Below, in pieces: positions 166-62,453 of a DNA stretch of 64,000 nt. This DNA comes from Brachypterus glaber (Eukaryota; Arthropoda; Insecta; Coleoptera; Kateretidae), in NCBI GenBank assembly GCA_958510825.1, contig OY294048.1, positions 36,421,026-36,485,025 of the forward strand, read 5' to 3'. Both the position numbers and the translations under genes were made by a program. The notes under the pieces were generated by a model that was not told the DNA's origin, ran no database searches, and worked only from the letters and a program-made list of their open reading frames with translations. Positions within the stretch are counted from its first letter, which is position 1; every line of letters begins with the position of its first letter.

Positions 166-400
166 CAACGAACTAATAACTCTTCTCTCTAGAATAGGTA
201 TTTCATTTTTAAAAACTGACAAAAATGTAGCCAACATATACATTTGTCTGTCTTACTCGCACAGCTTTGCTCTAACAGAGACAACAATAACAGTTGCTGG
301 TAACTGTTATTGTTCAGGCCTTTACAAACAAATCGAGATGTTGGCGATACTTTGTATTAACGGTATGCGTATTCTAGAGAGAAGAGTTATTAGTTCGTTG
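166..400. mobile_element. hAT-like MITE, copy 1 (235 bp)
   Basis: The ends are inverted repeats of about 30 bp beginning CAACGAACTAATAACTC. The first five bases, CAACG, fit the hAT terminal consensus YARNG. The flanking 8-mers GTAACAGG (158-165) and ATAAGAGG (401-408) match at 6 of 8 positions, as expected for an aged 8-bp target duplication. The element is non-autonomous. The reading frame crossing it on the plus strand (152-436) is not a gene. Confidence 0.82.
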
Positions 401-2598: not shown

Positions 2599-2600
2599 TA

Positions 2601-3482
2601 CACAGCCGCACATTAAATTCTGGACACCTTAAACATAGACATTTTTTAAATTCAAATATTACGAAAACTAATTAATGGATTTGACTAATTCTTTTTTAGT
2701 TTTAAAGCTTAAACATTCTTTACTTTTGTTTGTTTAAAGAATGATTATTTTTTTTTCGTATTAACAGCAACAAATAATGTACAACAATGTTTCTTACGCC
2801 ATCTTCTAGGACTTGCATGGTACGCCACTGCAACTGTTTATCAAATTATTAAAGTCTTTCTTATTGCCGCAGTTTTAATGAATATTTTCTTTTTTATTTT
2901 TTTACTTTTTTACTTCTGGTTTAGGAGATATCAGGATTTTCCTGAAAGTTGTCATTTTTTCAAAGATCGCTTTTGTTTTTTTTTATAAATTCTAATAACC
3001 GAGTTATGTTAAAAAAAATAAATATTATTAAAATACAAAAAAATGCAGCTTTTATGAATGCTTTGTTTTTGTAAAAAAAGTATTAACAATTGGAACAAAA
3101 ACAATAATTGACTAAAAAAGTTGTGTTATTGTTGATTTTTCTTTCAGGAAAATCCGGATATCTCCTAAACCGGAAGTAAAAAAGTAAAAAAAAATAAAAA
3201 AGAAAATATTCATTAAAACTGCAATAAGAAAGACTTTAATAATTTGATAAACAGTTGCAGTGGCGTACCATGCAAGTCCTAGAAGATGGGCTAAGAAACA
3301 TAGTTGTACAGTATTTGTTGCTGTTAACACGAAAAAAATTAAATTATTCTTAAAACAAACAAAAGTATGTTTAAGCTTTAAAACTAAAAAAGAATCAGTC
3401 AAATCCATTAATTAGTTTTCAAAATATTTGAATTTAAAAAATGCCAATTTTTTAGCTGTCCGGATTTTAATGTGCGGCAGTG
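2601..3482. mobile_element. 880-bp palindromic foldback element
   Basis: Nearly the whole element is two inverted arms of roughly 370 bp around a ~150-bp centre. The termini are CACAGCCGCACATTAAA on the left and the inverse of CACTGCCGCACATTAAA on the right. TA flanks both sides (2599-2600 and 3483-3484). It directly abuts the preceding foldback, sharing that element's border TA. The 98-codon minus frame at 3112-3408 lies within one arm and is not a gene. Confidence 0.8.
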
Positions 3483-3984
3483 TAATTAAAAAAAATATAT
3501 TTTTTTTGCAGTCCCTATTATTTTTATTATTTCGAACATACGGCGTATTTTTTACACCACCAAATTTTAAATGAACACGTGACAAATCAATGTGCAGCAT
3601 ACCTACTTCTCCGCTCAGATTTAGGGCTTAAACTGAATGTCCGAAAGGTACTGTCGGAAAGCCGTAGTTGGTCGTAGTTGGAAGAAATCACAAATTGCAC
3701 ACTATCCAGGCGTAAAATCTACGCTGTGTTTGTGGCAGAGGGTTAATTAAAATTAAAAAAAAAACGCCTTACTCAATAAAAAATAAATTGGGTCGTGTCA
3801 AATAAATATTTTGAATTTTAAAAGCTCGCTTAAAATGAACTGTGAATGAAATTTAATTCAGTTATTTAGGTTTATAGTTGTATTAAACATAATTTAATTT
3901 CAATGCATAAAATGAAATATTTACTTAAGGCATTACTTTCTTTTATGACTCGTAAAGATATTTGGATTACAAAAAAAAAAAACA
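3483..3984. other. No feature seen
   Basis: AT-rich sequence without recognisable repeat ends or coding signal. The 62-codon frame at 3412-3600 has no protein-like composition. Confidence 0.4.
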
Positions 3985-5061
3985 AAGAATCTGGCACACA
4001 TATAGGGGGGTTCCTGGGCCTCAGTCAAACTGCCTTAAATTTTGGGGGTAAACATTAAATTAGGAAAATTGCAGCCAAATTAAATGACCAGTTTCGAAGA
4101 AAAACGCTTTTAAAAATCTAATTTTATGACAGATTTTTTGACGTATATTAAGGTTATTTTTTACTTACGTAAATTATTTATTATTATTTAAAGAACAGGC
4201 AAGATAAATATTACATAAAAGGCTTTATTATCATTTACTTACATGTGGTTCTATAAAAATTTTAAAACTTTGTGAAACTTCCACATGTTGGCATTTTCCA
4301 CGTGTTTGCTAATTATCTGCATATTTTCTGTTAGATTATATATTTTAGATTTTCTTGATATATTTTTCCAAAAATACGTCTGAGGCTAGACAAATCTGTT
4401 ATCATATTTTCAAAGGTAAAATAATATATTATATTATTGAGATTGCCTAGCAACAACTTTTAATAAATATTACTATAAAGGGTTTACTAATGAATTAAGT
4501 TGTTGTTAGGTAATCTCAATAACATGTTTTGCATATGAAAATATCATGAGAGATTTGTCAACCATCACATATTGCTTTTGAAAAAATATATCAAGAAAAT
4601 CTAAAATATATAATTATAAAATATTTGTCGATGTACCAAACCATGTTTCAACATAATCAAGCAAAAATCTAACGGAAAATATGCAGATAATTAGCACACG
4701 TGGAAAATGCCAGCATGTGGAAGTTTCACAAAGTTTTAAAAGTTTTATAGAACCACATGTAAGTAAATGATAATAAAGCCTTGTATGTAATATTTATCTT
4801 GCCTGTTCTTTAATTAATAAAGTATAATAAACTTAAAACAGCTAATTAAGTTAATATTTACGTAAGTAAAAAATAACCTTAATATACGTCAAAAAATCTG
4901 TCATAAAATTAGATTTTTAAAAACGTTTTTCTCCGAAACTGGTCATTTAATTTGGCTGCAATTTCCCTAATTTAATGTTTACCCCCGAAATTACAAAATA
5001 TCAAATTTTGAGGCAGTTTGACTGAGGCCCAGGAACTCCCCTATATGTGTGCCAGGTTCTT
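3985..5061. mobile_element. 1.08-kb palindromic foldback element
   Basis: The outer words CTGGCACACATATAGGG and CCCTATATGTGTGCCAG are inverted. The inversion continues inward through the TTCCTGGGCCTCAGTCAAAC block, the ACCAGTTTCG block, a TTGACGTATATTAAGG block and a CCACATGTTGGCATTTTCC block, so the arms are about 500 bp each. No coding frame is present. This is the longest continuous palindrome in the left third of the window. Confidence 0.85.
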
Positions 5062-5365
5062 TAAATGGAAATTTTTGACAAAATTAATTAATTAACATTT
5101 TTTATGGCATCATTAAACTCTGGCGGTTTAACCAATTGTTTGGTTAATTCTCTCACTGGAATTCTTTTGTTCGATAAATTGGTTCATTATTCAGTGCGTT
5201 TTATAAAAACAGAATGACATTACCAACATTATAAAAATGGCTTTTACTGTTTTATGCGAAAGAGAACATTTCTAACAATACGGTTAAACACCCTTCAATC
5301 ATCAATAAGCTTATTTCAGTTTTTTTCTAAATAACATATTTGCATTCTAGAACACATAATGACTA
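5062..5365. other. No feature seen
   Basis: Unremarkable AT-rich spacer between two foldback elements. Confidence 0.4.
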
Positions 5366-13205: not shown

Positions 13206-13226
13206 GAATATAATAATTGGAATATA

Positions 13227-13650
13227 CACGGAAAGAAATTAGTGGGCTCTGCGCTATACATTATAAGATATTTGGTAACAGTGGCAAATTATAGTGATTT
13301 AAGCTATAGATTATAAGGGACACAATAACTAATAATGTTAAAAATAAATTGGAAACGATTATATATATTACAGACACGATTATATTTATTACAGGCACTA
13401 TTATAAATTTACAGAAATTTTATTATATTATAAAAATTATTAGCACGGACAATAATTAAATCTATTTAAGCTATAAATGCCATACTATTTGTTATATTTT
13501 ATTATTCACTAAACAATTAAAGTATTTCATATAAATTTTTACACTGACTGCCATAATTGTAAGAGAAAGCCTTGTATTTATATAATAAGCGATTATAATT
13601 TGCTTGGTATGTGTGTTATAGCGCTCCTAGCTATAATTTTTTTTTCCGTG
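13227..13650 (+). mobile_element. 424-bp 'CACGG...CCGTG' MITE, copy 1
   Basis: The ends are CACGGAAAGAAATTAGTGG and TATAATTTTTTTTTCCGTG, with TA on each side. The body is AT-rich and has no frame. Four further copies with very few differences lie at 33928, 38768, 52817 and 61780, which implies recent amplification. Confidence 0.9.
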
Positions 13651-15192: not shown

Positions 15193-15639
15193 GTTTATTG
15201 CCCAACAGTACAAACTAACAGGACATTCAAATAATACATTAAATTATTATATAAAGTTAATAATAGATCTTAAACTAGAAAAGTTAATATCACAATTTAA
15301 TGAAATTTCATTAAAATTATTACACATTAAGTAAATTGGTGATTTGTACAATAAATTGGTGTTTGCTCTAGGCATAAAAAAAGTTTTAGATTGACGTCTT
15401 GTACTAGGTACCAAAAAATTAATCCTAGACAATAAGTCACTACAATCAATTATATTATGTAATAAATTATATAAAAATGTTACTGAAAATATCTTTCTGC
15501 GTATATTTAAAAACTTAATATTAAATCTTAACATTAAACCTGATAAATCAGCACCTCTTAAAGGATATACTCCATCTGTTTTAAAATATAGCCGGGAGCA
15601 TATAATGAAATAAAAATGGTCACCAGCTTTCCGACTATA
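15191..15639 (-). pseudogene. 3' fragment of a Jockey/CR1-like non-LTR retrotransposon
   Basis: The minus-strand frame, 95 codons from its first Met, continues upstream without a stop. It encodes the tail of a reverse-transcriptase polyprotein. LNIRRKIFSVTFLYNLLHN and DCSDLLSRINFLVP align with SRRNIANACFVFKLINGL and DCPDLLSIINFLVP of the larger element at 48714-49766. The catalytic domain is absent. The upstream side is broken by the foldback at 15640; the open frame resumes beyond it at about 16775-16890. It is a dead fragment lying about 300 bp from the furin exon. Confidence 0.8.
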
Positions 15640-16770
15640 CCGGGTATTTCAGGAAGGTGATTCACCCACCTTAACTTTTTTATACTTAGAGCTATCCAAA
15701 TGAAATTTAGAGATCATGTATAAGACAAAATTTGCTATTTTTTGACATATCAAACAACTTTTTTTCACTTCCGGTTTCACCGGAAATGTCCTAAACTTTC
15801 GATTTTTAAATGGCACACCCTATATATTTTTACATATTTTGTCTTAGAAATCAAGTCTGAATACAACCATATGTCACTTGTCAATTTTTGACAGGTCATG
15901 TCATTTTTTATTTAAATTTTCATTTTAAACCTAGAGTGCCTTGAATTGGCTTATTTGCTTAATTTTTGGTCTAGTTTCTTAAGAAAAATACTATTTTGAT
16001 TTTTTTCCGAAAACTCTATTTTTGATGCGTTCTTAAAAGTTTAAAAGTTACACTTTGATACTACACATGCATCGTTTATTTTAAAGAACTTGGCCTTAAA
16101 ATACCAATTTTTACTATTCACTTTTTGTAATTGCATTTGAATTCAGATTTAATATGACAAAACAAAAACTGAGATGGCTTTGAAAAACAATTTTTAGAAA
16201 TTTCATCCTTCAAGTTTTAGTTTGGATGTTTTATAGTTCATAGTCTGAGAGCGTTAAGATAAAAGTTTCAAAATGTTTTTCAAAGCCATCTCAGTGTTTG
16301 TTTTGTCATCATTTAAAAGTAATGAGCCACCCTCTTCCCATTTAAAAAAAATGACTTATGGGCAAAAGTGTAACTTTTAACTTTTAAGAGCGCACCAAAA
16401 ATAGAGTTTTCGGAAAAAAATCAAAATAGTATTTTTCTTAAGAAACTAGACCAAATATTAAGCAAATAAGCCAATTCAAGGCACTCTAGGTTTAAAATGA
16501 AAATTTAAATAAAAAATGACATCACCTGTCAAAAATTGACAAGTGACATATGGTTGTATTCAGAATTGATTTCTAAGACAAAATATGTAAAAATATATAG
16601 GGTGTCCCATTTAAAAATCGAAAGTTAAGGTGAAACCGGAAGTGAAAAAAAGTTGTTTGATATGTCAAAAAATCGCAAATTTTGTCTTATGCATGGTCTC
16701 CAAATTTCATTTGGATAGCTCAAAGTATAAAAAAGTTAAGGGGGATGAACCATCTTCCTGAAACACCCGG
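15640..16770. mobile_element. 1.13-kb 'ACCGGGT' palindromic foldback
   Basis: The ends are CCGGGTATTTCAGGAAG and the inverse, finishing CTTCCTGAAACACCCGG. TATA stands at both borders (15636-15639 and 16771-16774). The arms stay inverted for about 500 bp each and include CACTTCCGGTTTCACCGG and CTTTCGATTTTTAAATGG. It lies inside the retrotransposon fragment. Isolated ends of the same type occur near 60131 and possibly 38026. Confidence 0.87.
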
Positions 16771-16774
16771 TATA

Positions 16775-16890
16775 GTGACTTGGAACCCTACGATTCGGAA
16801 CTCGCGATAAAAACGGTTTTCTCCTTGTGAGTCGTCCATTCCGATTCGTTGGGCACAAACAACCCTGAACGACGTACACACTTTCAAAAG
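16775..16890 (-). pseudogene. Probable continuation of the interrupted retrotransposon fragment
   Basis: This GC-richer block keeps a minus-strand frame open across the foldback if the foldback and one TATA are ignored. Its peptide was not recognised, so it may be a different fragment that the 3' piece was joined to. Confidence 0.35.
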
Positions 16891-29010: not shown

Positions 29011-29152
29011 AGGAACGTTCAAGTATTACGTAACGCTCCTAGGGGTCATTCTGGAGTATTACGCCTAATGGTATAGGAAAATAGCGTTAAAGGGGGGGGG
29101 ATGGGAGTCCAAAATGATCAAAACTTGCGTTAAGTAATACTTGAACGTTCCC
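29011..29152. mobile_element. 142-bp palindromic MITE with TAA target duplication
   Basis: The ends are AGGAACGTTCAAGTATTACG and the inverse, finishing AATACTTGAACGTTCCC. TAA flanks it on both sides. A single end of the same type (GGGAACGTTTAAGTATTACG) lies at about 44785. Confidence 0.82.
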
Positions 29153-33050: not shown

Positions 33051-33293
33051 CAAAGAACTAATAACTCTTCTCTCTAGAATGGGCATTTCATTTGTAAAAC
33101 GTAGCCAACATATACATTTGTCTGTCTTACTCGCACAGCTTTGTTCTAACAGAGAAAACAATAACAGTTACTGGTAATTGTTATTGTTCAGGCCTGAATA
33201 TACCTACTATTTGTTTACAAACAAACCGAGATGTTGGCGATACTTTATATTAACGGTATGCGTATTCTAGAGAGAAGAGTTGTGAGTTCGTTG
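33051..33293. mobile_element. hAT-like MITE, copy 2 (243 bp), exact 8-bp TSD
   Basis: Same termini and body as the element at 166-400. The 8-mer GTATGAGT flanks it exactly on both sides (33043-33050 and 33294-33301). This fixes the element borders and supports hAT membership. Confidence 0.92.
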
Positions 33294-33927: not shown

Positions 33928-34351
33928 CACGGAAAAAAAAATTATAGCTAGGAGCGCTATAACACACATACCAAGCAAATTATAATCGCTTATTATATAA
34001 ATACAAGGCTTTCTCTTACAATTATGGCAGTCAGTGTAAAAATTTATATGAAATACTTTAATTGTTTAGTGAATAATAAAATATAACAAATAGTATGGCA
34101 TTTATAGCTTAAATAGATTTAATTATTGTCCGTGCTAATAATTTTTATAATATAATAAAATTTCTGTAAATTTATAATAGTGCCTGTAATAAATATAATC
34201 GTGTCTGTAATATATATAATCGTTTCCAATTTATTTTTAACATTATTAGTTATTGTGTCCCTTATAATCTATAGCTTAAATCACTATAATTTGCCACTGT
34301 TACCAAATATCTTATAATGTATAGCGCAGAGCCCACTAATTTCTTTCCGTG
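33928..34351 (-). mobile_element. 'CACGG...CCGTG' MITE, copy 2
   Basis: Inverted, near-identical copy of 13227-13650. It is flanked by TT on each side instead of TA. Confidence 0.9.
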
Positions 34352-34553
34352 TTGTTTTTTAAATTTTAATCAAATGTGTATTGTGCATAATACATTCTTT
34401 TTTGGTAAAATTTATAAATGTTACAATATTTTCGAGAAAATTGAGGTCTCTAAAACTAAACATGATAGTATTTTCTAACGAAATGCAATAAGTTTTAATT
34501 CGTGAAAATTTGTATGTACGGGGTGCTAACTTTAAGTTGTAAGGGTTTTTGGT

Positions 34554-36000
34554 GCCGCTGAAACTGAATCGGTTAAAAAAAATCTAAACCTACTTTCGTC
34601 GGAAGTTCCGAGGGCTGAAGGAAAAATAAATTTTAAATTTTTTAGTATTTTAACTGTTATACTGTGATACTATTTTTTAATATTTTAACTGTCATACTGC
34701 TGTAAACAAAACAATATATTTATCTGTAGGTCTAGATTTATTAAAACAAAAAACTTTTTCGTTTCAACATTTTTTTTGAAAAACGAAAAAAAATTGAAAA
34801 AAAAGAAGAATTTTACCAAAAAAAAATCCCAGGTTTGGATAAGGAACCTATGGTCTAAATTTATTCTTTAGCTCAAGGTGCTCTTGAGTTATCGTGGTCA
34901 CAGACAGATATAAAACGTAAAAAAAACAATATTTTTTTTTTCAAAATTTTTTTACCAAGTAAGACCCTCGGGGAAATAAAATTGGCATTTTAAGATTTTT
35001 ATTGTTGCTAAAACGAAATCTGATAATAGAAGTGCACCCACAGCATAAAAAATAGCAACAAGGTTTTTGGGCCGCTGAAATTGAATCTGACAATATATTT
35101 TTTATATATTTATATTTTAACTGTTATCCTGCTGTAAACAAACGAATATATTTCTATGTAGGTCTGGGTTTATTAAAACAAAAAACTTAATTCAATTTTT
35201 TTTTTTGAAAAACGAAAAAAAAAAAAAAATAGAAAAAAAAGAAGAATTTTAACAAAAAATAATCCCAGCTTTGGATCAGAAACCTATGGTCTAAATTTAT
35301 TCTTTAGCTCTTGAGTTATCGTGGACACAAATTTCCCGTACAGACAGATGTAAAACGTAAAAAAAATAATATTTTTTTTCCTTTTTTTTTACTAAGTAAA
35401 GACCCTCGGGGAAATAAAATTGGCATTTTAAGATTTTTATTGTTGCTAAAATGAAATCTGATAATAAAAGTGAAACCCACAGCATAAAAAATAGCAACAA
35501 GGTTTTTGGGCCGCTGAAACTGAATCTGACAATATATTTTTTATATATTTATATTTTAACTGTTATACTACTGTAAACAAAAGAATATATTTCTCTGTAG
35601 GTCTAGGTTTATTAAAACAAAAAACTTAATTATTTTTTTTTGCAAAAAGAAAAAAAAATGAAAAAAAAAAAATGAAAAATTTTACCAAAAAAAATCCCAG
35701 CTTTGGATAAGGAACCTATGGTCTAAATTTATTCTTTAGCTCTTAAGTTATCGTGGACACAAATTTCCCGTCTGTACGGGTATAAAACGTAAAAAAAAAA
35801 CAATATTTATTTTCAAGATTTTTTTAACTAAGTAAAGACCCTCGGGAAAATAAAATTGGCAGTTTAAGACTTTTATTGTTGCTAAAACGAAATCTGATAA
35901 TAAAAGTGCACCAACAGCATAAAAAATAGCAACAAGATTTTTGGGCCGCTGAAACTGAATATGACAATATATTTTTTAAATATTTACATTTTTTGATAAA
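34554..36000. repeat. Tandem array of a ~435-520-bp unit (about three units)
   Basis: The word GCCGCTGAAA starts units near 34554, 35071, 35510 and 35945 (periods about 517, 439 and 435). Units share ATCCCAGCTTTGGAT, CTATGGTCTAAATTTATTC, GAGTTATCGTGGACAC and AAGACCCTCGGGGAAATAA. PolyA/T tracts vary. The 67-codon frame at 35297-35500 is internal to a unit. Confidence 0.88.
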
Positions 36001-36014
36001 TATAACGTTATAGT

Positions 36015-36043
36015 CAACGAACTAATAAGTTATAAGTTCGTTG
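36015..36043. mobile_element. 29-bp hAT-like remnant with perfect 8-bp target duplication
   Basis: The sequence is only the two MITE termini: left CAACGAACTAATAA, right GTTATAAGTTCGTTG. GTTATAGT flanks it exactly at 36007-36014 and 36044-36051. It belongs to the family at 166-400 and 33051-33293, but with the whole interior missing. Confidence 0.88.
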
Positions 36044-36099
36044 GTTATAGTGGATAAATAAAAGAATTGGCGCAAGTTAGGATGGGCCGAATAGCAACT

Positions 36100-36514
36100 A
36101 AAGTTTATTTTTTTAAGGTATAGTTATTTTAAATTTTCCACTACTTCACAAAGTCCGATTTACACTGAAGCATGTGGCTTGTTTTGATTGTCAACATAAC
36201 CAAAATTTATAATTTTTGTTTACTTACTTTGTTTTTATGATGTAAAAAAAATAATTGATAAAGCTGATGCTAAAAACACTTTTGTATTCCTGTAGAAAGA
36301 AAATTTGCTTATAAAATCGCTTTTATTCCAATAATATAGAGGAATAAACCATTGTTTTGTTCTCGTTAATGACACGTCAACGTTTTACGGTTGTGTAAAT
36401 TGGGTCTAGTCATTTCGCTTACGACGCATGCGTATCTTACGTTGCTATGGTAATTTCGAGATTGTTTACAAGCGGGAAGGTTTAAAATAACTATACCTTA
36501 AAACAATAAACTTT
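36100..36514. mobile_element. ~415-bp MITE with ~40-bp terminal inverted repeats
   Basis: The ends AAAGTTTATTTTTTTAAGG and TATAGTTATTTTAAA return inverted at 36480-36514. There is no coding frame. A further piece, GGTATAGTTATTTTA, lies at about 36641. Confidence 0.75.
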
Positions 36515-37122
36515 AATATCCACTGTTGATGATGATAAATGCCAAACTGTGAAATGCGCATATGGAACTATTCCATTTGGCCTCTTATATAAAGATTTTA
36601 CACCGCAGGCAATGAAATTTTATAGTTTTTCGATTTTATAGGTATAGTTATTTTATGGGTGTAATTCCACATCAATATCTCTTTATTGGCTGGATAAATG
36701 TTCGAACACGACCTCGCTGAGCCCCTGTACAACTAAATCTGATTTTTATGACTTCAATTCTGAAACCATGATCGATTTTAATATTATATTTTTACAGTTT
36801 TATCCAAGGTGAAAGATATAACAAGCCGTGATGATGTGTAATGCTACGCATCCATTATATACTATTCACAGTAAATGGTATATTGCATTTTCCCAAATAC
36901 TTAAAAAAAAATAAATAAAAAAAATATACATTTAAAAAAAATCTTTTTTTGAAAAACAAAAAATTTTAGAAAAAATAAATAAAAAAATAAATTTTTACAA
37001 ATAAGTAAAAAAGATTTTTACTTTTTTTTTTGAAGATCTTTTTTTGGAAAACGAAAAAATTAAGTTTCTTTTTCAAAAAAAAAAACATTTAAAATATTAA
37101 TAATTTTTTTTATTTTATTTTT
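36515..37122. other. No gene seen
   Basis: AT-rich; polyA/T-rich between 36900 and 37100. Confidence 0.4.
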
Positions 37123-38135: not shown

Positions 38136-39293
38136 TACAGGGTGATCAATAACTGGCATGCCAAAATTTAAGAGGTGATTCTGCATCCAAAAACATCAAA
38201 AAAAGTTCCTATAAAGGTTGAACCGCAAATGAGTCCTAAGGGAGCTACGGCCCCTTAAAATTTTAATAAAAATAAGGTTTTTAATTAATAAATCTGGTAC
38301 CCTTTAAGCTAGAGCAACGAGCTTGTGTATTAGTATTAATAAGGGCAATAAGTTTATGTTAAATTATTTTTTTAAATTTATCCAGAGGCGTCCCTAGACG
38401 GAAAATGTATTAGGCTTAACACATTTTTGCCCCAAACTTTTTTATGTGTACTTTTTTTGGATTTGTTGTAAAAAATATAGATTCCTTGAGTAAAAATACA
38501 TAAAAAATGTCATAGTGTAATACTGTAGAAGCAACCGTTTTCAAAAAAAAAATGCAATTAAGAGGAAGTAACATTTTGTTCCACCAAAAACGTTACTTTT
38601 TAAAAGGCTATTACTCCTTTAATATTAAATTTAGGTGTTTTGGTGAAGAATTCTTTTTTGCTCAGTTTTAAATGGAAAATCGCCCTGCAACATTAAAATT
38701 TTATTGAAGCTTTTTTTTGTTCCCCATTCAATATGCCATCTTCGAAGGGCCATGTCATCTTCCCTTACACGGAAAGAAATTATTGGGCTCTGCGCTATAC
38801 ATTATAAGATATTTGGTAACAGTGGCAAATTATAGTGATTTAAGCTATAGATTATAAGGGACACAATAAGTAATAATGTTAAAAATAAATTGGAAACGAT
38901 TATATATATTACAGACACGATTATATTTATTACAGGCACTATTATTTTACAGAAATTTTATTATATTATAAAAATTATTAGCACGGACAATAATTAAATC
39001 TATTTAAGCTATAAATGCCATACTATTTGTTATATTTTATTATTCACTAAACAATTAAAGTATTTCATATAAATTTTTACACTGACTGCCATAATTGTAA
39101 GAGAAAGCCTTGTATTTATATAATAAGCGATTATAATTTGCTTGGTATGTGTGTTATAGCGCTCCTAGCTATAATTTTTTTTTTTCGTGTAGGGCTCATT
39201 TCCGGACCCAGCTTTATAAAAACTTTTTTTCATATTTTTGGATGTAGAATCACCTCCTAAATTTTGGCATGGCAGTTACTGATCACCCTGTAT
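38136..39293. mobile_element. 'CAGGGTGATC' family MITE, copy 4, both ends intact, hosting a second MITE
   Basis: The left end is TACAGGGTGATCAATAACTG and the right end the inverse, finishing ACTGATCACCCTGTA, with TA at both borders. It is interrupted at 38766-39191 by a 'CACGG...CCGTG' element. Without that insert it is about the length of copy 1. Confidence 0.88.
38768..39189 (+). mobile_element. 'CACGG...CCGTG' MITE, copy 3, nested
   Basis: It is inserted into the block that reads CTCCCTTAGGGCTC in the sister element at 1861-2598. Here the flanks read CCCTTA and TAGGGCTC, so exactly TA was duplicated. Confidence 0.92.
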
Positions 39294-42661: not shown

Positions 42662-42735
42662 ATGCCATCCAGTAAAAAAAAGGCTTCCCCTAAAAAAGAA
42701 AAACTAAGGAGCGCAGTAGAGCTAATGTTAAATAA
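42662..42735 (+). other. Lys-rich short reading frame cut by a transposon
   Basis: ATG at 42662 opens MPSSKKKASPKKEKLRS and then AVELMLNN, and is broken at 42736 by the palindrome. Beyond the palindrome the frame stops within about eight codons. It could be the start of a transposase of the older element around it. The product is not recognised. Confidence 0.2.
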
Positions 42736-43723
42736 CACAGGCCCACAAAAAATTCTGAGTCTTGGTTTCCAATATGATATTCCTATATATTTTTTTCCGC
42801 TGAAACTGAATCCGCAACCCGTTTAACCCCTACACGTCAGGATTTTGACATAACCTCAAAAAACACTCGAAAAACTACTAAAACCTCTAAAATCATCTAT
42901 GCCATACCACTGTCACCCCCCTTTCCCCAAATTGCTAGTTCTAAAACCCCAGAAACCCATAATCCCCTAACCTCATAATACCATAGCCGCATAACCTCCA
43001 AACCCCGTAACCTCATTAAGTAGAAAAATCTAGTTTGGGAAAACAGAACAAATTCTTCAGTGTTTTTTGTGGAACATAGTCATAGGTAAGTTACTCTATA
43101 ATCCCAAAATCCCCTAAAACCCTAACCTCGAAATCCCTTCACTTCGTAATCCCATATACTATATCCCCTTAATACCGTTATCCTATCCTGTGGAGAAGTC
43201 TGGTTAAAAAATAATGAAGTAGACCTTGATTCATGACTTCACTAACAAAACTCATGATTTTGACAACCGGATTTCTCCACAGAATAGGATGATGAGGTTA
43301 AAAGGTTATAATATATGGGGTTACGGAGTGAAGGGGTTAGGAGGTGTGATGGGATTTTAGTGTTATACAGTTACTTATTCATAACTATATTCTACAAGAA
43401 AATTTCACGTAATTGTTCTGTTTTCCCGAACCAGATTTTTCTACTTAATGATGTTACGGGGTTTTGAGGTTATGGAGTAAAGGTATTCCGAAGTGAGGGG
43501 ATTATGGGGTTACGAAATTACGAATTTGGAGAAAGGGGGTGAAAGTTGGAGGAGATGATTTTAGCGGTTTTAGTGGTTTTTCGGGTGTTTTTTGAGGTTA
43601 TGTCAAAATTCTGACGTGTAGGGGTTAAACGGGTTACGGATTCGGTTTCAGCGGGAAAAGATACATAGGAATATCATATTGGAATCAAAGACTCACAAAA
43701 TATTTTTTTTTTGTGGGCTTGTG
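42736..43723. mobile_element. 'CACAGGCCCAC' palindromic element, copy 1 (988 bp), TAA duplication
   Basis: The ends are CACAGGCCCACAAAAAA and the inverse, finishing TTTTTGTGGGCTTGTG. TAA flanks it on both sides (42733-42735 and 43724-43726). Arms are inverted almost to the centre. They contain a quasi-repetitive stretch built of CCCCATAACCTC-like words. TTA/TAA duplication points to PIF/Harbinger. Confidence 0.87.
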
Positions 43724-44171
43724 TAATCAACTTTTATATTTTAACTAAAATATCTATGCGCAAGGTAAAACCTCTGCCAATCCTAGGTACAAAGCCCCTG
43801 TTGTACCTTGATTCTAAATACAATTTTTTTTTCAAGTGTGTTAAAAAATATAAAAAAAGTAATTTAGGAGAATTTTAAAATATAACTATCAAGCCTAAAA
43901 CACAGGAAAACATAATTTAAACAGTCAAAAATGACCATGATATTATACTACACTGTGAGTTGAGCGATATAAGAAACTATAAAAAAAAATCCATTTCTCA
44001 AAATATGTGTTATAATGCTTCGTTAGCATATCGTGAAATAAATACACGTTCCACTCCAGTCTTAGTACTTTCAAAGAATGTACTTACATCTTTAAAAAAG
44101 TTCAGGGCATTTTTTAAGAAAATATGCTAGGAGTGCCAAAAACTATATAACTTTTAAATTATTAAATTTTT
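43724..44171. other. No gene seen
   Basis: AT-rich; contains the GTTGTACCTTGATTC word near 43797 that may belong to the disrupted older element. Confidence 0.4.
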
Positions 44172-44630: not shown

Positions 44631-45293
44631 TAAGATTATCAAAATAATAAAAATAAAATTGTCCGATAAGTTTTGATTTTACATTAGTCTTTGTTGGTGT
44701 TATGGCGCGCCGGATCAAACCAGTTTACTAGTTAAATTTACTATTTATTTTTTCAGTATATAAGCGGTTAAATTTTACTATTTGGGAACGTTTAAGTATT
44801 ACGTAACTCAAATTTTGATTATTTTGGTTTGGACTTAACACTGAAAATGTTCAAACTTTTAAAATACAGCGGTGTTGCCCTCTTCATTTTTATTTTTTAT
44901 TTTGATACTTAGATAACGATTGTTTATAAAATTTTGCAATAAATATGTATATTTGTGTATTGGTGTTTGTTTAACCATTTACAAGAAAGGTTCTTGTTTG
45001 TAATTTTTTTCTAGATATAAGTAAAAATATCCTCAGAAATTCTTCTTTTTCTCTGGTGTATTTTAAGATTCATTATTTTATGCTACATTTTATCTTTTAT
45101 CTTAATTGTTGTAGAACAAGGAAAATTTATTAGAAGTTGAGGTTATGTTTTTTAGTTTTCTTAATATCAGTTAATTATAATTTAGTTTAGTGTAGGTAGT
45201 GATAATTATGACTGAATCGGCCTTTAGTTAGTTTAGTGTTAATGACTGGTAAACCATCATAAATATCTGCTTAATTTTAATAATTACACAGGC
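44631..45293. other. No gene seen; isolated 'GGGAACGTTTAAG' end
   Basis: About 44784-44840 matches one end of the MITE at 29011. No second end was found. Confidence 0.45.
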
Positions 45294-45296
45294 CCA

Positions 45297-46277
45297 CAAA
45301 AAAAAGTCTGAGTGTTGGATTCCAATATGATATTCCTATGTATTTTTTCCCGCTGAATCTGAATTCGCAACCCGTTTAACCCCTACACGTCAGGATTTTG
45401 ATATAACCTGAAAAAACACCCGAAAAACTACTGAAACCTCTAAAATCATCTCTGCCATACCACTGTCACCCCCCTGTCCCCAAATTTCTAATTATATAAC
45501 CCTAGAACCCCATAATCCCCTAACCTCATAATACCATAGCCTTATAAGCTCAAAACCCTGTAACCTCATTAAGTAGAAAAATCTAGTTTGGCAAAAAAAG
45601 AACAAATTCTTCAGTTTTTTTTGTGGAACATTGTCATATGTAAGTAACTCTATAACCCCAAAATCCCCTAACACCATAATCTCAAAATCCCTTCACTTCG
45701 TAACCCCATATACTATATCCCCTTAATCCCGTTATCCTATTCTGTATAGAAGTCCGGTTAAAAAATAATGAAGTAGACCTTGATTCATGACTTCACTCAC
45801 AAAACTCTTATGATTTCGAGAACCGGACTTTTTCACAGAATAGGATGATGGGGTTAAGAGGTTATAATATATGAGGTTACGGAGTGTAGGGGTTATGAGG
45901 TATGATGGGATTTTGGGGTTATACAGTTACTTGTTTATAACTATGTTCTACAAGAAAATTTCACGTAATTGTTCTATTTTCCCGAACCAGATTTTTCTTC
46001 TTAATGAGGTTACGCGGTTTTGAGGTTATGAAGTAATGGTATTTCGAGGTTAGGGGATTATGGGGTTACGAAATTACGAATTTGTAGGAAGGGGGTGAAA
46101 GTGGTATGGTGTAGATAATTTTAGCGGTTTTAGTAGTTTTTCGAGTGCTTTTTGAGGTTATGTCAAAATCCTGACGTGTAAGGGTTAAACGGGTTACGGA
46201 TTCGGTTTCAGCGGGAAAAAATACATAGGAATATCATATTGGAATCCAAGACTCAATTTTTTTTTTGTGGGCCTGTG
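45297..46277. mobile_element. 'CACAGGCCCAC' palindromic element, copy 2 (981 bp), TTA duplication
   Basis: It is a close sister of 42736-43723 in the same orientation. The flanks are TTA (45294-45296) and TTA (46278-46280), both exact. The minus-strand frame at 45492-45677 is a by-product of the CCCC-rich arm. Confidence 0.9.
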
Positions 46278-46624
46278 TTATAATTAGTATGGGTTTTCAT
46301 TACTTTATTTAAATGTTAAACAATTTTTTATTTAAAAATTTCATTATAGTAGAAAGTAATATAAAAAGGAATTTCCTAGTTTAACTAAAAGAGCTTGCTT
46401 ATATATTTTATTATATTTAGTCGTTGCGAGTCGTTTGCTTTTGGTTTGATTTGAATTCTTGGAAGATAAATGAAAAACTATTGTTATATTGGAGTTAATT
46501 TCAAAAGACTTTATTGGGAAAAGCACCCATCTGTAACTTAGTTCAAATGATCAAAGTGGCTTACAATTTCCAAATAATTGAAATTGTAATAGCAGTACGT
46601 CCTGACTAAGGTAATATGTCGTAT
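46278..46624. other. No feature seen
   Basis: AT-rich spacer. Confidence 0.4.
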
Positions 46625-47582: not shown

Positions 47583-47989
47583 AGTTGCAAGAATACAGGT
47601 CCGGACTAGGCCACAGCGGCAATTCCATAATCTGGTAGTTACTGACTTTTTTTTCACAATATACAAGCATCTCAAATGCAACCTACTGCAAATGAGAGTG
47701 AAAATTAGAGTGAAAATTTTCACATGTGCTGAATTTCACCGGAAATTTTATGTACCTTTGGTGGAAAGACCTCGGCTCGTTACCCTTTTTGTTCTCCAAT
47801 AAAGATATTTACTATTATTATGATTTTAATGCTTTGTAGAATAGAGTAGTGAAATAATATTTGTGTTATTCGAAAGTCGAACTAAATCTTTACTCCAAGA
47901 CACCGTGCGGTGTGCTAACATGTTAAATTTGATTTCTCACACACCATTAAATTTCACGATACTTCGCCTTTCTCTTCCAAATTCATGTT
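47583..47989. other. No feature seen
   Basis: AT-rich spacer between the piggyBac-like element and the satellite. Confidence 0.4.
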
Positions 47990-48713
47990 CACAGCTACTG
48001 TAGCAAACAGTTTTGGAATGCTAACTAACCGGATTAACTATTAATCTGGATAAAAGTCCATAGAATAGTTATTATTTTTCCACGACTTAGAATATTTAGT
48101 CGATTAACAAAAAATGGAAAAGTACGGTTAACTAAAAATAAATGTTTTCCACACAATTTAGTTGTGTTAATGTGGATTATTAAATAAAGTTATGTTTGTT
48201 TGACATTTATACAATCATTAATTACATTTTAACTTAAATTTAATGACATTTATGACAGATAAACAAATATTTGTCAAAGGAAAAAACAAAATTTATGGTG
48301 TAACAATTTGACTTCTAAAGAGTGACCGCAAAAAAAGAGGTTTTTTAGCCTGTTCACAGTCACTGTAGCAAACAGTTTTGGTATGCTAACTAACCGGATT
48401 AACTATTAATCGGGATTAAAGTCCATAGAATAGTTATTATTTTTCCACGACTTAGAATATACAGTCGATTAACAAAAAATGGAAAAGTAGGGTTAACTAA
48501 AATTTAATGTTTTCCACAAAATTTAGTTGTGTTAATGGGATTATTTAAATAAAGTTATGTCTGTTTGACATTTTTTATTTATTTTTTTTTTATTTATTTA
48601 TTTACGGGAAAGCCCCATTACAGTAAAGTATAACAAAAAATATATAAGCTAATAATTAAGAATACTAACTAAAAGTAAAATATAAATATAAAAACAAATG
48701 GTGAAATGAATTA

Positions 48714-49766
48714 TTAATGATCTTGAATAGAGCGAATAGAGGATTTAAATTTTTTTAAATTTCCTAAAAATGGATCAACTTTCGATTGATTTATAAACTT
48801 TAAAGTTAAGTTTAGTGGTGTTAGTGCCGCATAATTTGTACTGTGATGCGCAATAAAAAATGTATTTTGTACACCCCTTGTATTTCTAACAGGTACTAAA
48901 AAATTAATTATGCTTAGCAAATCAGGACAATCAACTAATCCGTTTATCAATTTAAAAACAAAACAGGCATTAGCTATATTCCTCCTAGAATCGAGTGACT
49001 CCAGACCAGTGATCCTTTGAATTAAACAGTAGTCATGACCAATAGTTCTAAAATTCATTTTATATGCAATTATACGCAAAAACTTATGTTGAATTTTAAC
49101 CAACAGTTTTTTATCTTGAGCTGTGTAAGGAGACCAAATGAGGGTACAATATTCTAGATTCGATCTGACCAGAGATTTGTATAACGTAATTATAGTATTT
49201 GTAGAAAATTGTAAACAGTTTCGTGTTACAAAGCCAAAGTCCAAACAAACTACTTTGTTTGCTTTCAGAGAAATATTTTTAATATGTTCTGAGAAATTTA
49301 AATTTTCACTGAAAGTGATACCCAAGTCTTTAACGGATTTGACATATTTTAATGGCTTACCATTGATGGTATAGAAGCAATTAAACTTTTTAAGACCTCT
49401 GAAAAAACTTATGAACCAGCACTTTTCTATATTTAACCTAAGATTGTTAGCTGTGGACCAATTAAAAATATTAGCAACATCTCTCTGCAAGCTTAACCAA
49501 TCTTCATAAGTTTTTATAATTTTGAAAAATTTAAAATCGTCAGCAAATATTAAACCCTCGCTAGACTCCAGACACTGAACCATGTTGTTAATAAATATAT
49601 TAAACAACAGTGGGGCGCAATGTGAACCCTGAGGTACACCTGATAGTACTTCTATGACAAATGATAAAACCCCAAGTATGTGAACGTACTGTTTTCGATC
49701 CATTAGAAAACTGCAAAACCATTTTATTAACTTTCCATCAAAACCAAACATAGCAAGCCTAGGCAT
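48714..49766 (-). pseudogene. Second half of the reverse transcriptase domain and C-terminal region
   Basis: The 350-codon frame overlaps the preceding one by eight bases and picks up at LAMFGFDGKLIKW. It carries GVPQGSHCAPLLFN and the catalytic box IFADDFK, with FADD in place of the commoner YADD, then NIEKCW, VKDLGITF and SNLEYCTLIWSP. The C-terminal LINFLVP-type segment is the part shared with the fragment at 15191-15639. The catalytic residues are present, so the element was probably inactivated by truncation and frameshifts rather than by loss of active-site residues. Confidence 0.93.
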
Positions 49767-50650
49767 CTACTGTGTCAAATGCCTTAGAGAAATCCGTGTA
49801 AATCGAGTCTAGCTGCCAACCCTTCTCTAAGGCATATAGAATTTTTTCTCTGTAAATGGCAAGATTCGTTACAGTGGAGCGTCCAGAAAAAAATCCATGT
49901 TGACGAGTAGATAGCCTAGGCTTGCATTGCCAAGTTAGTTGGTCACACACCAAACTGTCCAGTAGTTTAGGTATGGAAGATTGGATGGAAACACCTCTAT
50001 AGTTTTTAATATTACACCTCTCGCCACTTTTAAAAATAGGTACAATAAAGCTTGTTTTCCAGATATCTGGAAAAATACCGGAATCAAGTGATAAATTAAA
50101 AAGAATACTTAAGGGTGGCGAAACAGTGCAGTTACATTCTTTAAGAAGTACATTAGGTAGCCCGTCAGGGCCAGCTGAATATTTTGCAGGAATTTTTTGA
50201 ATTTTGTTAAATATATCCAATATAGTGATTTTTCTAAGGGAAATACTTGAAGCCGAATAATTTTCTACAACATTGTTTGCGGTAATATTATGAGCCTGAT
50301 AGACAGAGGAAAAATATTCTGCAAAGAGATTTGCGATGTCATGAGCATTATTAGCACTTCTATCTTCAAGCTTCATAACATTAGGTATGCCATTGTTCTG
50401 TTTTTTATTATTAACAAAAGACCAAAAGTTAGTAGGATTAAATTTTAAATCGTTATCCACCCTATTCAAGTATGTACTGTAAGAATCTTCTGCCAGTTTC
50501 CTACATCTTGCCCTTAGTTGCGAAAAGACTTCATAATCTGCCACTAAACCTGTTTCCTTATATCTTTTGTGTGCACCCTTTTTTTGAATTATTAAACTTT
50601 GAAGCCCTTTATTAAACCATTTTGGAAAATTGGTTTTAATAAACTTTTTC
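49763..50650 (-). pseudogene. Linker and first half of the reverse transcriptase domain
   Basis: This frame continues from the endonuclease after the slip. It has the linker (RARCRKLAEDSYSTYLNRV, NPTNFWSFVNNKK), then reverse-transcriptase blocks: KYSAGPDGLPNVLLK, FIVPIFKSG, NYRGVSI, RQHGFFSGRST and TDFSKAFDTVD. The D of AFD is the first catalytic aspartate and is intact. The frame stops right after TVDA through a second frameshift near 49763. The enzyme would copy element RNA at the nicked target. Confidence 0.92.
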
Positions 50651-51193
50651 TGGGAAAAAAAAGAGATATACCAATATTTAAAATTTCACAAAATTCCTTA
50701 GTTGCAACGTTGCAGTCTAAATTATTAAATAATTTTTCCCAATCAATAGAAGAAATAAAGTTATTAAGAGCAATATAGTCTGCGTTTTTAAAGTCATAAA
50801 ATAATTCGGAGTAGGTAAGAGTATTAATAATATTTTCGCAACCAACAGAAAGATTAAAGTTATAAGCAATGTGATGAAATGAATTAGGTAATAAAAGATC
50901 ATAAGCAAAAGATGTATAAATTTCAGAGTCATTTGTAAATAACAGATCTAAAAATACCCCTCGATTGTTTGGAATAGTATTAAGTTGCTCCATATTTAAA
51001 AACGTAGATGACTCCACTATAGTTTCCTCACAATCGACAGTAGCCGCTGTTGGAAGATTAAAATCACCAAAAGCAGAGATAGATGCATCCGGGTATAGTA
51101 GTGCAATGTATTCGACTGCAGAACAATTCTCTTCATACTTTTCTACAGAAGAAGATGGTGGAATATAGACACCTCCAACAACACAAATTTTAT
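50640..51193 (-). pseudogene. C-terminal part of the apurinic-type endonuclease domain
   Basis: The frame is open from the truncation point. Early residues read GVYIPPSSS, then AFGDFNLPTA and FLDLLFTNDSEIY. GDFN and LDLxFT are conserved features of the APE-like endonuclease of non-LTR retrotransposons, which nicks target DNA for reverse transcription. The N-terminal catalytic part is gone. The frame breaks near 50650-50660 in an eight-base A/T run; the next frame carries on in register with FIKTNFPKWFNKGLQ, so a single-base slip is likely. Confidence 0.85.
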
Positions 51194-52015
51194 TTTATAC
51201 AATCAATAATGACACTTTAACTTAAATTTAATGACATTTATGACAAGTAAACAAATATATGTCAAAGGAAAAAAACAAAATTTACAGTGTAACAATTTGA
51301 CTTGTAAAGAGTGACCGCAAAAAAAGAGGTTTTTTAGCCTGTTCACAGTTACTGTAGCAAACAGTTTTGGAATGCTAACTAACCGGATTAACTATTAATC
51401 TGGATTAAAGTCCATAGAATAGTTATTATTTTTCCACGACTTAGAATATACAGTCGATTAACAAAAAATGAAAAAGTAGGGTTAACTAAAAATAAATGTT
51501 TTCCACAAAATATAGTTGTGTTAATGTGGATTATTTAAATAAAGTAATATCTGTTTGACATTTATACAAACAATAATGACACTTTAACTTAAATTTAATG
51601 ACATTTATGACAAGCAAACAAATATTTGTCAAAGGAAAAAACAAAATTTACAGTGTAACAATTTGACTTGTAAAGAGTGACCGCAAAAAAAGAGGTTTTT
51701 TAGCCTGTTCACAGTTACTGTAGCAAACAGTTTTGGAATGCTAACTAACCGGATTAACTAATAATCTAGATAAAAGTCCATAGAATAGTTATTATTTTTC
51801 CACGACTTAGAATATACAGTCGATTAACAAAAAATGAAAAAGTAGGGTTAACTAAAATTTAATGTTTTCCACAAAATTTAGTTGTGTTAATGTGGATTAT
51901 TTAAATAAAGTAATGTCTGTTTGACATTTATACAAACAATAATGACACTTTAACTTAAATTTAATGACATTTATGACAAGCAAACAAATATTTGTCAAAG
52001 GAAAAAACAAAATTT

Positions 52016-52814: not shown

Positions 52815-52816
52815 TA

Positions 52817-53240
52817 CACGGAAAAAACAATTATAGCTAGGAGCGCTATAACACACATACCAAGGAAATTATAATCGCTTATTATATAAATACAAGGCTT
52901 TCTCTTACAATTATGGCAGTCAGTGTAAAAATTTATATGAAATACTTTAATTGTTTAGTGAATAATAAAATATAACAAATAGTATGGCATTTATAGCTTA
53001 AATAGATTTAATTATTGTCCGTGCTAATAATTTTTATAATATAATAAAATTTCTGTAAATTTATAATAGTGCCTGTAATAAATATAATCATGTCTGTAAT
53101 ATATATAATCGTTTCCAATTTATTTTTAACATTATTAGTTATTGTGTCCCTTATAATCTATAGCTTAAATCACTATAATTTGCCACTGTTACCAAATATC
53201 TTATAATGTATAGCGCAGAGCCCACTAATTTCTTTCCGTG
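52817..53240 (-). mobile_element. 'CACGG...CCGTG' MITE, copy 4
   Basis: Inverted near-identical copy of 13227-13650, with TA on both flanks. Confidence 0.9.
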
Positions 53241-54123
53241 TAGAAGTCGAAAAATAAACAGAAACAAACGACGATCTGACAGTACTGACAGTATAAACAA
53301 AATACTAATAATTCGTCACCACAGTATTGGTTTGCCATTTTTTTATTTTCGGACATTTTGAGATTTTTACGGGGGGATTTTTGGAGATACGACAAATGAA
53401 TACTAGGGTGCTAAGTTTATATTTTAACCGGATGCTATCACTCAGAAATTTGGTAAAAACTGCTAAAAGTTCAGCCTAAACTTAAGGGCTTGTGGTTTAT
53501 TGCGACGTTTAATTGACCCACGTGCCATTGTTTGATTAAAGTTTACCCTATAGAAGCCGGAGAACGCCCAGTAAATTACAAACAATAGCCCTAATTGAGT
53601 GGAGAATAGCTATTAAAATAACAGTAAACATTTTATCATTATATTTTATTATTCCCCATCTAAAATTAAACAAATTACTTGAAAATTGATCAAAAGGGTT
53701 AAGTATAACACAGCTGGAACTAGTACATAGTCGAAGACCTGGTAAGCATTTTCAATAATTTTACATATCGGTTTGTAAAGTTTGAAACCTCTCAAAAAAA
53801 CAATTTTTTGTTCCTTGTACTAATCAAAATACATTTTTTTAAATGACTGCAGAATTTGCTTTTATGAATATTGTTTTAATCAAATTCGGGTCACTTGGGG
53901 TGAGACCTCCAAATTTTTCATTTTAAAATTTTGGTGGGTCATATTGGTGTTAACGTTTTTGCCGATTGATATTTAAAAAAATCTTTTAACATCTTAAAGG
54001 CAAATCCTTTTTTTTATAAGTCACCCAAATTTAATTAAAAAATATTTATAAATGCATTTAAAAAAAATGTGTTTTTTTTTCTTAAACGCCTTGTAATAAA
54101 AACTGTGCGGTCGTAGCCCAAAT
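53241..54123. other. No feature seen
   Basis: AT-rich DNA without matched repeats. Confidence 0.4.
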
Positions 54124-58424: not shown

Positions 58425-59426
58425 TGTACATAGAAAAAAAGGATATCTTGAACCAAAGCAAAACGATCTTGAACCAAGGCCGCCATGGCTTTCGATATGT
58501 TCAACGCCATGACTGTCTTGCATCAAGTCCGCCGTGATCTTGGCATTTGAGGTCCTAGATTTAAGGACATTTCCTTAAATCAAAGCCACTTAAACATTTA
58601 TTTAAGATCATATTATCTTAAACCAAGTATGTAATTATCTTGATTTAAGATCATATTATCTTTCTCCAAGATCATATTATCTTGCACCAAGTCTTGGTTT
58701 AAGATAATATAATCTTGAATGAAGAGAATTATAATCTTGATTTAAGATTATGATTCTCTTGATTCAAGATCATATTGACCCCACAGTCAGGTTCCAGGGT
58801 AAATAAAATGGTAAATATTTTGAAAAAAATTCCCACACATGTATAATATTATTTCGCACGCCTATGAAATATGACTTTCTTATTCTGTTAATCGTGTGAA
58901 ATTTGGTTTCATAGGTGGTCGTAGGAAAAAGCACTTGTTTTTGAAGAAAAACTTGTTGCAACGCCAATGGCGCTTATAGGTATAAACTATTTAATGCTAC
59001 TTACCCGTGAATTTTTTAAGTAAATTTGAAAATCCCCATCATTTGAGGGCAACAGATACAATTTCGTCCTTTTTAAAGCAGATGAAAACAATGATACACC
59101 TTTAAAGACAACTGAGGGCAAAAAAAAACAAACCTAACTTCTCTCCCGCGCATATCTTGAACACTTTACCGTAAGACAACAGGGGCTTTGAGTCAAGATA
59201 ATAACTCTTGATTCTCTGTTACTATTTTAAATGTCATGCATTTAAGGAAAAATCCTTGGCACAAGGATTTTTCTACCAAGAGAATAATTTAAGGAAACCA
59301 AAGTCGCAGATAATCTTAAACCGAGGATACATGATCTTAAAAGAAGATTATTACCTCGATTTAAGATAATATAAATCCAAGATAATTTATTATCTTCTGT
59401 CAAGATAACCTTTTTTTCTGTGTACA
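58425..59426. mobile_element. 1.0-kb element built of AAGATCATATTATCTT palindromes
   Basis: The outer ends TGTACATAGAAAAAAAGGA with TATCTTGA and the inverse, finishing CTTTTTTTCTGTGTACA, are inverted. Inside, AAGATCATATTATCTT or close variants occur near 58609, 58647, 58669, 58699 and 58735. CTTGAACCAAG-type words fill the rest. The pattern returns at 59200-59400. Confidence 0.75.
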
Positions 59427-61779: not shown

Positions 61780-62203
61780 CACGGAAAGAAATTAGTGGGC
61801 TCTGCGCTATACATTATAAGATATTTGGTAACAGTGGCAAATTATAGTGATTTAAGCTATAGATTATAAGGGACACAATAACTAATAATGTTAAAAATAA
61901 ATTGGAAACGATTATATATATTACAGACACGATTATATTTATTACAGGCACTATTATAAATTTACAGAAATTTTATTATATTATAAAAATTATTAGCACG
62001 GACAATAATTAAATCTATTTAAGCTATAAATGCCATACTATTTGTTATATTTTATTATTCACTAAACAATTAAAGTATTTCATATAAATTTTTACACTGA
62101 CTGCCATAATTGTAAGAGAAAGCCTTGTATTTATATAATAAGCGATTATAATTTGCTTGGTATGTGTGTTATAGCGCTCCTAGCTATAATTTTTTTTTCC
62201 GTG
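61780..62203 (+). mobile_element. 'CACGG...CCGTG' MITE, copy 5
   Basis: Near-identical to 13227-13650 and of the same 424-bp length. It is flanked by TT on both sides instead of TA. Confidence 0.9.
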
Positions 62204-62453
62204 TTCCATTATAAATTGTATTGATTTTTCACTCCACTTGTTTGTACAGTTTTAGTTGTTAATAAAAACTCAATTGGGGCAAAAAAAGGAAGAAAAATGG
62301 TCTAATTCGATTTTATACCGCCAATAGATTGGGACAGCTCCTCATTAAATACTGATCACCAATGACCCGTAACTTATATCTATTCGAATAAAACTAAAAG
62401 CTTTTCGATAACACTGCTCAACCAAAAAATAAATTCGGTAACCAAGAGGATGT
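62204..62453. other. No feature seen
   Basis: Spacer between the MITE and the SINE. Confidence 0.4.

What the first reader, a model, noticed from the sequence alone, without database searches (positions are those of the whole stretch)
36007..36051. A 29-bp hAT-like element that is only its two ends, with a perfect 8-bp target duplication
The element at 36015-36043 consists of CAACGAACTAATAA followed by GTTATAAGTTCGTTG, i.e. little more than both terminal repeats. It is bracketed by two exact copies of GTTATAGT. Family members of 235 and 243 bp lie at 166-400 and 33051-33293. Either the interior (about 206 bp) was deleted after insertion, or a minimal end-to-end palindrome transposed by itself. 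The exact duplication means that it was young when the interior went, or that it moved in this form.
Basis: partly seen in the sequence, partly recalled or inferred. Interest (0 to 1): 0.78.

Follow-up and report, generated by a model that had tools for sequence, protein, structure and literature searches.

The report
Scar of a departed P-like transposon
A 29-letter palindrome in an animal genome is best read as the scar left when a small jumping element was cut out with long overhanging ends, as happens with fruit-fly P elements, rather than as a tiny element that can jump by itself.

Summary
Positions 36015-36043 hold CAACGAACTAATAA+GTTATAAGTTCGTTG between two exact GTTATAGT copies; relatives of 235 and 243 bp lie at 166-400 and 33051-33293. 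Chance is excluded.

A third fits better: an end-joined excision footprint of a MITE whose transposase cuts far inside its ends. P-element transposase leaves 17-nt 3' tails of the terminal repeat on the donor DNA; joining them keeps both 8-bp duplications and up to 17 bp of each end. The locus keeps 14 and 15. Of 114 tabulated P-excision junctions from Rad51-deficient flies, 111 keep both duplications and 43 have 25-34 bp between them without insertion. Uniform random deletion of a 235-bp parent would leave 17 or fewer on both sides about 1% of the time.

The family's 31-bp terminal repeat fits P (27-31) better than hAT (5-27), and hAT cutting puts hairpins on the flanks. P membership is unproven: no transposase was found, the terminal letters are not P-like beyond chance, and the target duplication does not discriminate. 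The host-genome search did not complete.

The parts
36007..36014 (.). left copy of the 8-bp target duplication GTTATAGT
   Evidence: sequence
36015..36028 (+). left stub: 14 nt identical to the left end of E1 (CAACGAACTAATAA); its last A (36028) can come from either end (1-nt microhomology)
36029..36043 (+). right stub: 15 nt, 14 identical to the right end of E1 (GTTATaAGTTCGTTG; E1 has T at the lower-case position, E2 has G)
36044..36051 (.). right copy of the 8-bp target duplication GTTATAGT
   Evidence: sequence
166..400 (+). E1, 235-bp MITE of the same family; perfect 31-bp terminal repeats 166-196 and 370-400; duplication 158-165/401-408 matches at 6 of 8
33051..33293 (+). E2, 243-bp MITE of the same family; terminal repeat about 30 bp with 3 mismatches; exact duplication GTATGAGT at 33043-33050/33294-33301
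230..237 (+). subterminal inverted repeat GCCAACAT of E1, partner 338-345 (same repeat in E2: 33104-33111 and 33231-33238); weak, reached by about 4% of simulated sequences

Best explanation
The locus is an excision footprint. A MITE of the E1/E2 family inserted at 36007-36014 and duplicated 8 bp (shown by the exact duplication and the matching ends). A transposase supplied from elsewhere later cut it out, cutting one strand at the element's edge and the other about 15-17 nt inside, so that single-stranded tails of the terminal repeat stayed on the chromosome (inferred, by analogy with P-element transposase). The cell joined the two tails at a 1-nt overlap, keeping 14 nt of one end and 15 of the other between intact duplications (the junction is seen; the joining step is inferred). 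The family is therefore more likely P-like than hAT-like (inferred). The 29-mer is a dead scar, not a mobile unit.
For: (a) Both stubs are short, nearly equal and under 17 nt, with both duplications intact. (b) P transposase cuts 17 bp inside the 31-bp repeat (passages of PMC7776569); donor ends keep 17-nt 3' tails (PMC2895639). (c) PMC2895639 Tables 1-3 (counted): 111 of 114 tabulated junctions keep both 8-bp copies (63 of 66, 23 of 23, 25 of 25); 71 of the 111 have no insertion, and 43 of those have 25-34 bp between the copies, most often 30 bp (14, 6 and 7 isolates), mostly joined at a 2-nt overlap. The locus has 29 bp and a 1-nt overlap; no fly junction is exactly 29, but 27, 28 and 30 occur. 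(d) Uniform random internal deletion leaves both stubs at 17 nt or less with probability 0.0106 (235-bp parent) or 0.0099 (243-bp parent). (e) E1's terminal repeat is exactly 31 bp; Anopheles P elements have 27-31 bp and 8-bp duplications, and P-MITEs are known there. (f) hAT cutting puts hairpins on the flanking DNA.
Against: No transposase, autonomous relative or second footprint was found; the host-genome search did not complete 17 times. The 17-nt terminal sequence is no closer to the Drosophila P end than 4956 of 20000 shuffles (25%). The duplications start with GT in 3 of 3 left copies (E1's right copy starts AT) but end with AC in none, and both P (GTCCGGAC) and the hAT element hobo (GTNCGNAC) prefer GT...AC, so they do not choose. 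The fly junctions come from Rad51-deficient flies, some also lacking normal pol theta; in wild-type flies most recovered products are gap-repair hybrids. In Table 1 a 7-bp product is as common as the 30-bp one (14 isolates each), and 40 of the 111 junctions that keep both copies carry insertions. One base of the right stub differs from E1. Argument (d) assumes uniform breakpoints. Using the footprint to classify the family is partly circular. One locus only.
Confidence: 0.6

Rival explanations
1. Interior lost in place: ordinary deletion, or interrupted gap repair after excision that copied only 14-15 nt back from each side before end joining. The family may be hAT or P.
For: Incomplete copying followed by end joining gives most products recovered from wild-type flies after excision of the P construct studied, and gap repair has been proposed as the origin of internally deleted P-MITEs. 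A 1-nt overlap junction is compatible.
Against: Needs both breakpoints within 17 nt of the ends, about 1% under a uniform model, and leaves the near-equal stubs unexplained. No family copy of intermediate length turned up in the window's BLAST with E1 and E2.
Confidence: 0.25
2. The 29-bp palindrome itself transposed as a minimal element.
For: Exact 8-bp duplication and both ends present.
Against: One copy in 64 kb. [quoted passage not shown] Herves transposase (hAT) binds subterminal motifs, plus the right terminal repeat; stubs of 14-15 nt stop short of the inner regions.
Confidence: 0.04
3. A footprint of a transposase that is not P-related but also makes a long staggered cut.
For: Terminal letters show no significant likeness to P.
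Against: I recall no such animal superfamily with 8-bp duplications; this was not searched.
Confidence: 0.08

Closest known systems
End-joined P-element excision products in Drosophila (PMC2895639, Tables 1-3)
   Same: Both 8-bp duplications kept (111 of 114), up to 17 nt of each terminal repeat, often joined at 1-3 nt overlaps; 43 of 114 have 25-34 bp between copies without insertion, here 29 bp.
   Different: Induced in repair-deficient flies from a known element; here natural, in an unnamed animal, with different end sequences and no known transposase.
P-MITEs of Anopheles gambiae (PMC1562414)
   Same: Short non-coding elements (names carry numbers from 205 to 675 in the part of the legend shown, which I take as lengths) with P-like terminal repeats (masters 27-31 bp) and 8-bp duplications.
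   Different: There autonomous P elements are known; here none was found, and no sequences were compared because the passages seen hold none.
hAT MITEs such as Mar (PMC3517528)
   Same: 8-bp duplication, ends start with CA.
   Different: Mar has 11-bp repeats CAG(G/A)GGTAGGC and nnnTAnnn duplications; here 31 bp and no such motif; 3 of 11 terminal letters agree.

Membership tests
P superfamily (the parent MITE) | 8-bp target duplication | tested here: met
   exact at E2 and at the footprint, 6 of 8 at E1
P superfamily (the parent MITE) | terminal repeat of about 27-31 bp (insect P elements) | tested here: met
   31 bp perfect in E1, about 30 bp in E2; range; zebrafish P has 13 bp, so length alone does not define P
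P superfamily (the parent MITE) | terminal sequence like P | tested here: inconclusive
   alignment score to the Drosophila 17-mer matched or beaten by 4956 of 20000 shuffles; 4 of 13 letters agree with zebrafish Pdre2; P ends vary between families
P superfamily (the parent MITE) | GT...AC target preference | tested here: inconclusive
   GT start in 3 of 3 left copies, AC end in 0 of 3; hobo shares the preference
P superfamily (the parent MITE) | mobilised by a THAP-type P transposase | not testable with these tools
   host genome search unanswered; in the window, 4 of the 7 frames of 110 aa or more were scanned with Pfam and only reverse transcriptase matched
P-type excision footprint (the 29-bp locus) | both duplications intact, stubs of 17 nt or less from both ends, end-joining junction | tested here: met
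hAT superfamily (the parent MITE) | 8-bp target duplication | tested here: met
hAT superfamily (the parent MITE) | short terminal repeat (5-27 bp) | tested here: not met
   31 bp in E1, about 30 bp in E2 (range)
hAT superfamily (the parent MITE) | NTNNNNAN (Ac) or nnnTAnnn (Buster) duplications | tested here: not met
   0 of 3 left copies, nor E1's differing right copy; a preference only, n = 3
hAT superfamily (the parent MITE) | hAT transposase | not testable with these tools
   host genome search unanswered

The most novel reading that the evidence does not exclude
The 29-bp end-to-end palindrome is itself mobile: a transposon reduced to its two ends that a trans-acting transposase can still cut and insert.
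Probability: 0.04. Interest if true: 0.75.

Novelty: new member of a known kind. Interest (0 to 1): 0.36.

Why it matters
If right, a natural footprint tells what a MITE copy does not: that a transposase with a long staggered cut has acted on the family, and at least how long the stagger is (15 nt or more here). Counting such loci genome-wide could classify orphan MITEs as P-like or hAT-like from scars alone, and would show how germline breaks are joined in a non-model animal. It also warns against reading ends-only loci as minimal transposons.

Tried and rejected
Chance palindrome: rejected. Empty site inside the neighbouring 436-bp tandem array (34680-35992): the array's repeats end at 35992, before the locus, and no window sequence spans the joined flanks of any of the three insertions except the loci themselves. 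Relatives elsewhere: the 18-mer right end gave 0 hits in viral contigs and in genome contigs (both say that records of the window's own genome may be left out). An interior 19-mer gave 6 viral contigs and a 17-mer 47 prokaryote contigs; in all 53 the best match to E1/E2 is 17-32 bases at that one stretch, and four (L016, L044, L047, L052) also show scattered 14-24-base matches; I read these as chance. The degenerate 29-mer gave 0 in viral contigs. The phage, plasmid, E. coli and metagenome collections were not searched. A literature search for the end sequences found four papers holding only an 11-letter piece, which I did not open. Listings for very short MITEs (25 of 94 shown, mostly TIR-domain immunity), for MITE/hAT/internal deletion (25 of 41 shown) and for excision footprints with MITE and P element (7 shown) had no title or abstract that described an ends-only locus; I judged these from the listings. 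Terminal-sequence likeness to P was tested and is not significant. Another reading of the junction, left 14 + inserted GTTATA (equal to the first six letters of the duplication) + right 9, removes the single substitution and resembles templated insertions; possible but not needed. My first count of the fly junctions wrongly put 19 isolates of Table 1 among those with a damaged duplication; one search recounts all three tables and replaces it. Table 1's rows sum to 66 although the paper states 68 junctions.

Full report
What is there. The window is AT-rich (27-34% GC in 4-kb steps) and looks like animal, probably arthropod, DNA. Of seven frames of 110 aa or more, two neighbours at 48714-50685 match reverse transcriptase in Pfam, one of them below the curated cut-off. 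The named relatives of the first, among the 120 best of 277 hits, include Uroleucon, Callosobruchus, Plutella and Araneus proteins. The finding's sequence and coordinates are exact. Two longer copies, E1 (166-400) and E2 (33051-33293), share its ends. They differ from each other at 13 of 224 aligned sites plus two gaps.

Is it chance? No. The 29-mer occurs at one place, with none in 100 shuffles. Exact 8-bp duplications around short inverted-repeat inserts with at most one mismatch did not occur in 100 simulated sequences, though the window itself has one more, in a tandem repeat at 58608-58658. A scan for this family's ends between exact 8-mers found only this locus, against one hit in 100 simulated sequences at the stricter threshold and nine at the looser.

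What it keeps. Against E1 it keeps nucleotides 1-14 and 221-235, with a 1-nt overlap and one substitution. The stubs are nearly equal and both duplications are intact. If two breakpoints fell at random in a 235-bp element, both stubs would be 17 nt or shorter about 1% of the time (0.0106; 0.0099 for 243 bp). That figure assumes uniform breakpoints.

A mechanism that predicts this. P-element transposase cuts at the 3' end of the element and, on the other strand, 17 bp inside the 31-bp terminal repeat (passages of PMC7776569). The chromosome is left with 17-nt 3' tails (passages of PMC2895639). When these are joined, 8-bp duplications flank whatever is left of the two tails. Tables 1-3 of that paper, from Rad51-deficient flies with normal or mutant pol theta, list 66, 23 and 25 isolates. 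By my recount 63, 23 and 25 of them keep both full duplications. Of these 111, 71 have no insertion; 43 of the 71 have 25-34 bp between the copies, most often 30 bp (14, 6 and 7 isolates). Table 1 also has 14 isolates with 7 bp and 5 with 4 bp, joined at longer overlaps, and 40 of the 111 carry insertions. The finding, 29 bp with a 1-nt overlap, lies inside the main class. A review says in general terms that end joining leaves the overhang sequence flanked by the target duplications (passage of PMC3878927).

hAT or P? P elements make 8-bp duplications as hAT elements do, so the duplication does not settle the superfamily. hAT terminal repeats are given as 5-27 bp or 10-25 bp; Anopheles P repeats as 27-31 bp; E1 has exactly 31. 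hAT cutting makes hairpins on the flanking DNA, which would not be expected to leave 14-15 nt of each end. Against this, the terminal letters are not significantly P-like. The duplications begin with GT in 3 of 3 left copies and end with AC in none, and the published motifs of hobo and P both run GT...AC. An 8-bp subterminal inverted repeat, GCCAACAT, is present in both copies but is weak (40 and 42 of 1000 simulated sequences reach 8). So 'works like a P-type excision footprint' is well supported, while 'is a P-superfamily MITE' remains a lean.

Age. With half the E1-E2 difference per copy (2.9%), two 8-bp copies stay identical about 62% of the time, so exactness says little.

Mobility of the 29-mer. 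There is no second copy in the window, and the inner regions that P and Herves transposases contact are missing. The two collections that I could scan hold viral and prokaryote contigs, where nothing beyond chance matches appeared.

Verdict. A real feature, most likely an ordinary thing: a natural excision scar of a P-like MITE. Its value is as a diagnostic for classifying orphan MITEs. Papers were seen as listings or passages, and two sections of PMC2895639 in full; none was read whole.

Noticed in passing
13226-13650, 33928-34352, 38766-39191, 52816-53241, 61780-62204: Five copies of a roughly 425-bp element with ends ACACGGAAA...TTTCCGTGT (one ends TTTCGTGTA), 97.7-100% identical (three of them 100%), each overlapping a 21-bp tandem array; looks like a very recent MITE-type burst.
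   Followed up: partly
36099-36515: Another inverted-repeat element starting 48 bp beyond the footprint's right duplication: 41-bp arms, 93% complementary, beginning TAAAGTTTA.
   Followed up: partly
34680-35992: A three-copy 436-bp tandem array ends 14 bases before the footprint's left duplication.
   Followed up: partly
42723-43727, 45272-46281, 15634-16776, 3984-5062, 2599-3484: Five long fold-back stretches that match themselves in inverted orientation (75-82%); the first two are 90% identical to each other.
   Followed up: no
48714-51194: A LINE-like stretch broken into three frames on the minus strand: two match reverse transcriptase, the third has no Pfam match; similar repeats of a 366-bp tandem unit lie on both sides (47986-48573 and 51194-52015).
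   Followed up: partly
29013-29150: A 122-bp insert with ends AAGTATTACGTAACGC (1 mismatch in 12) inside an exact 8-bp duplication GAACGTTC that is itself a palindrome.
   Followed up: no
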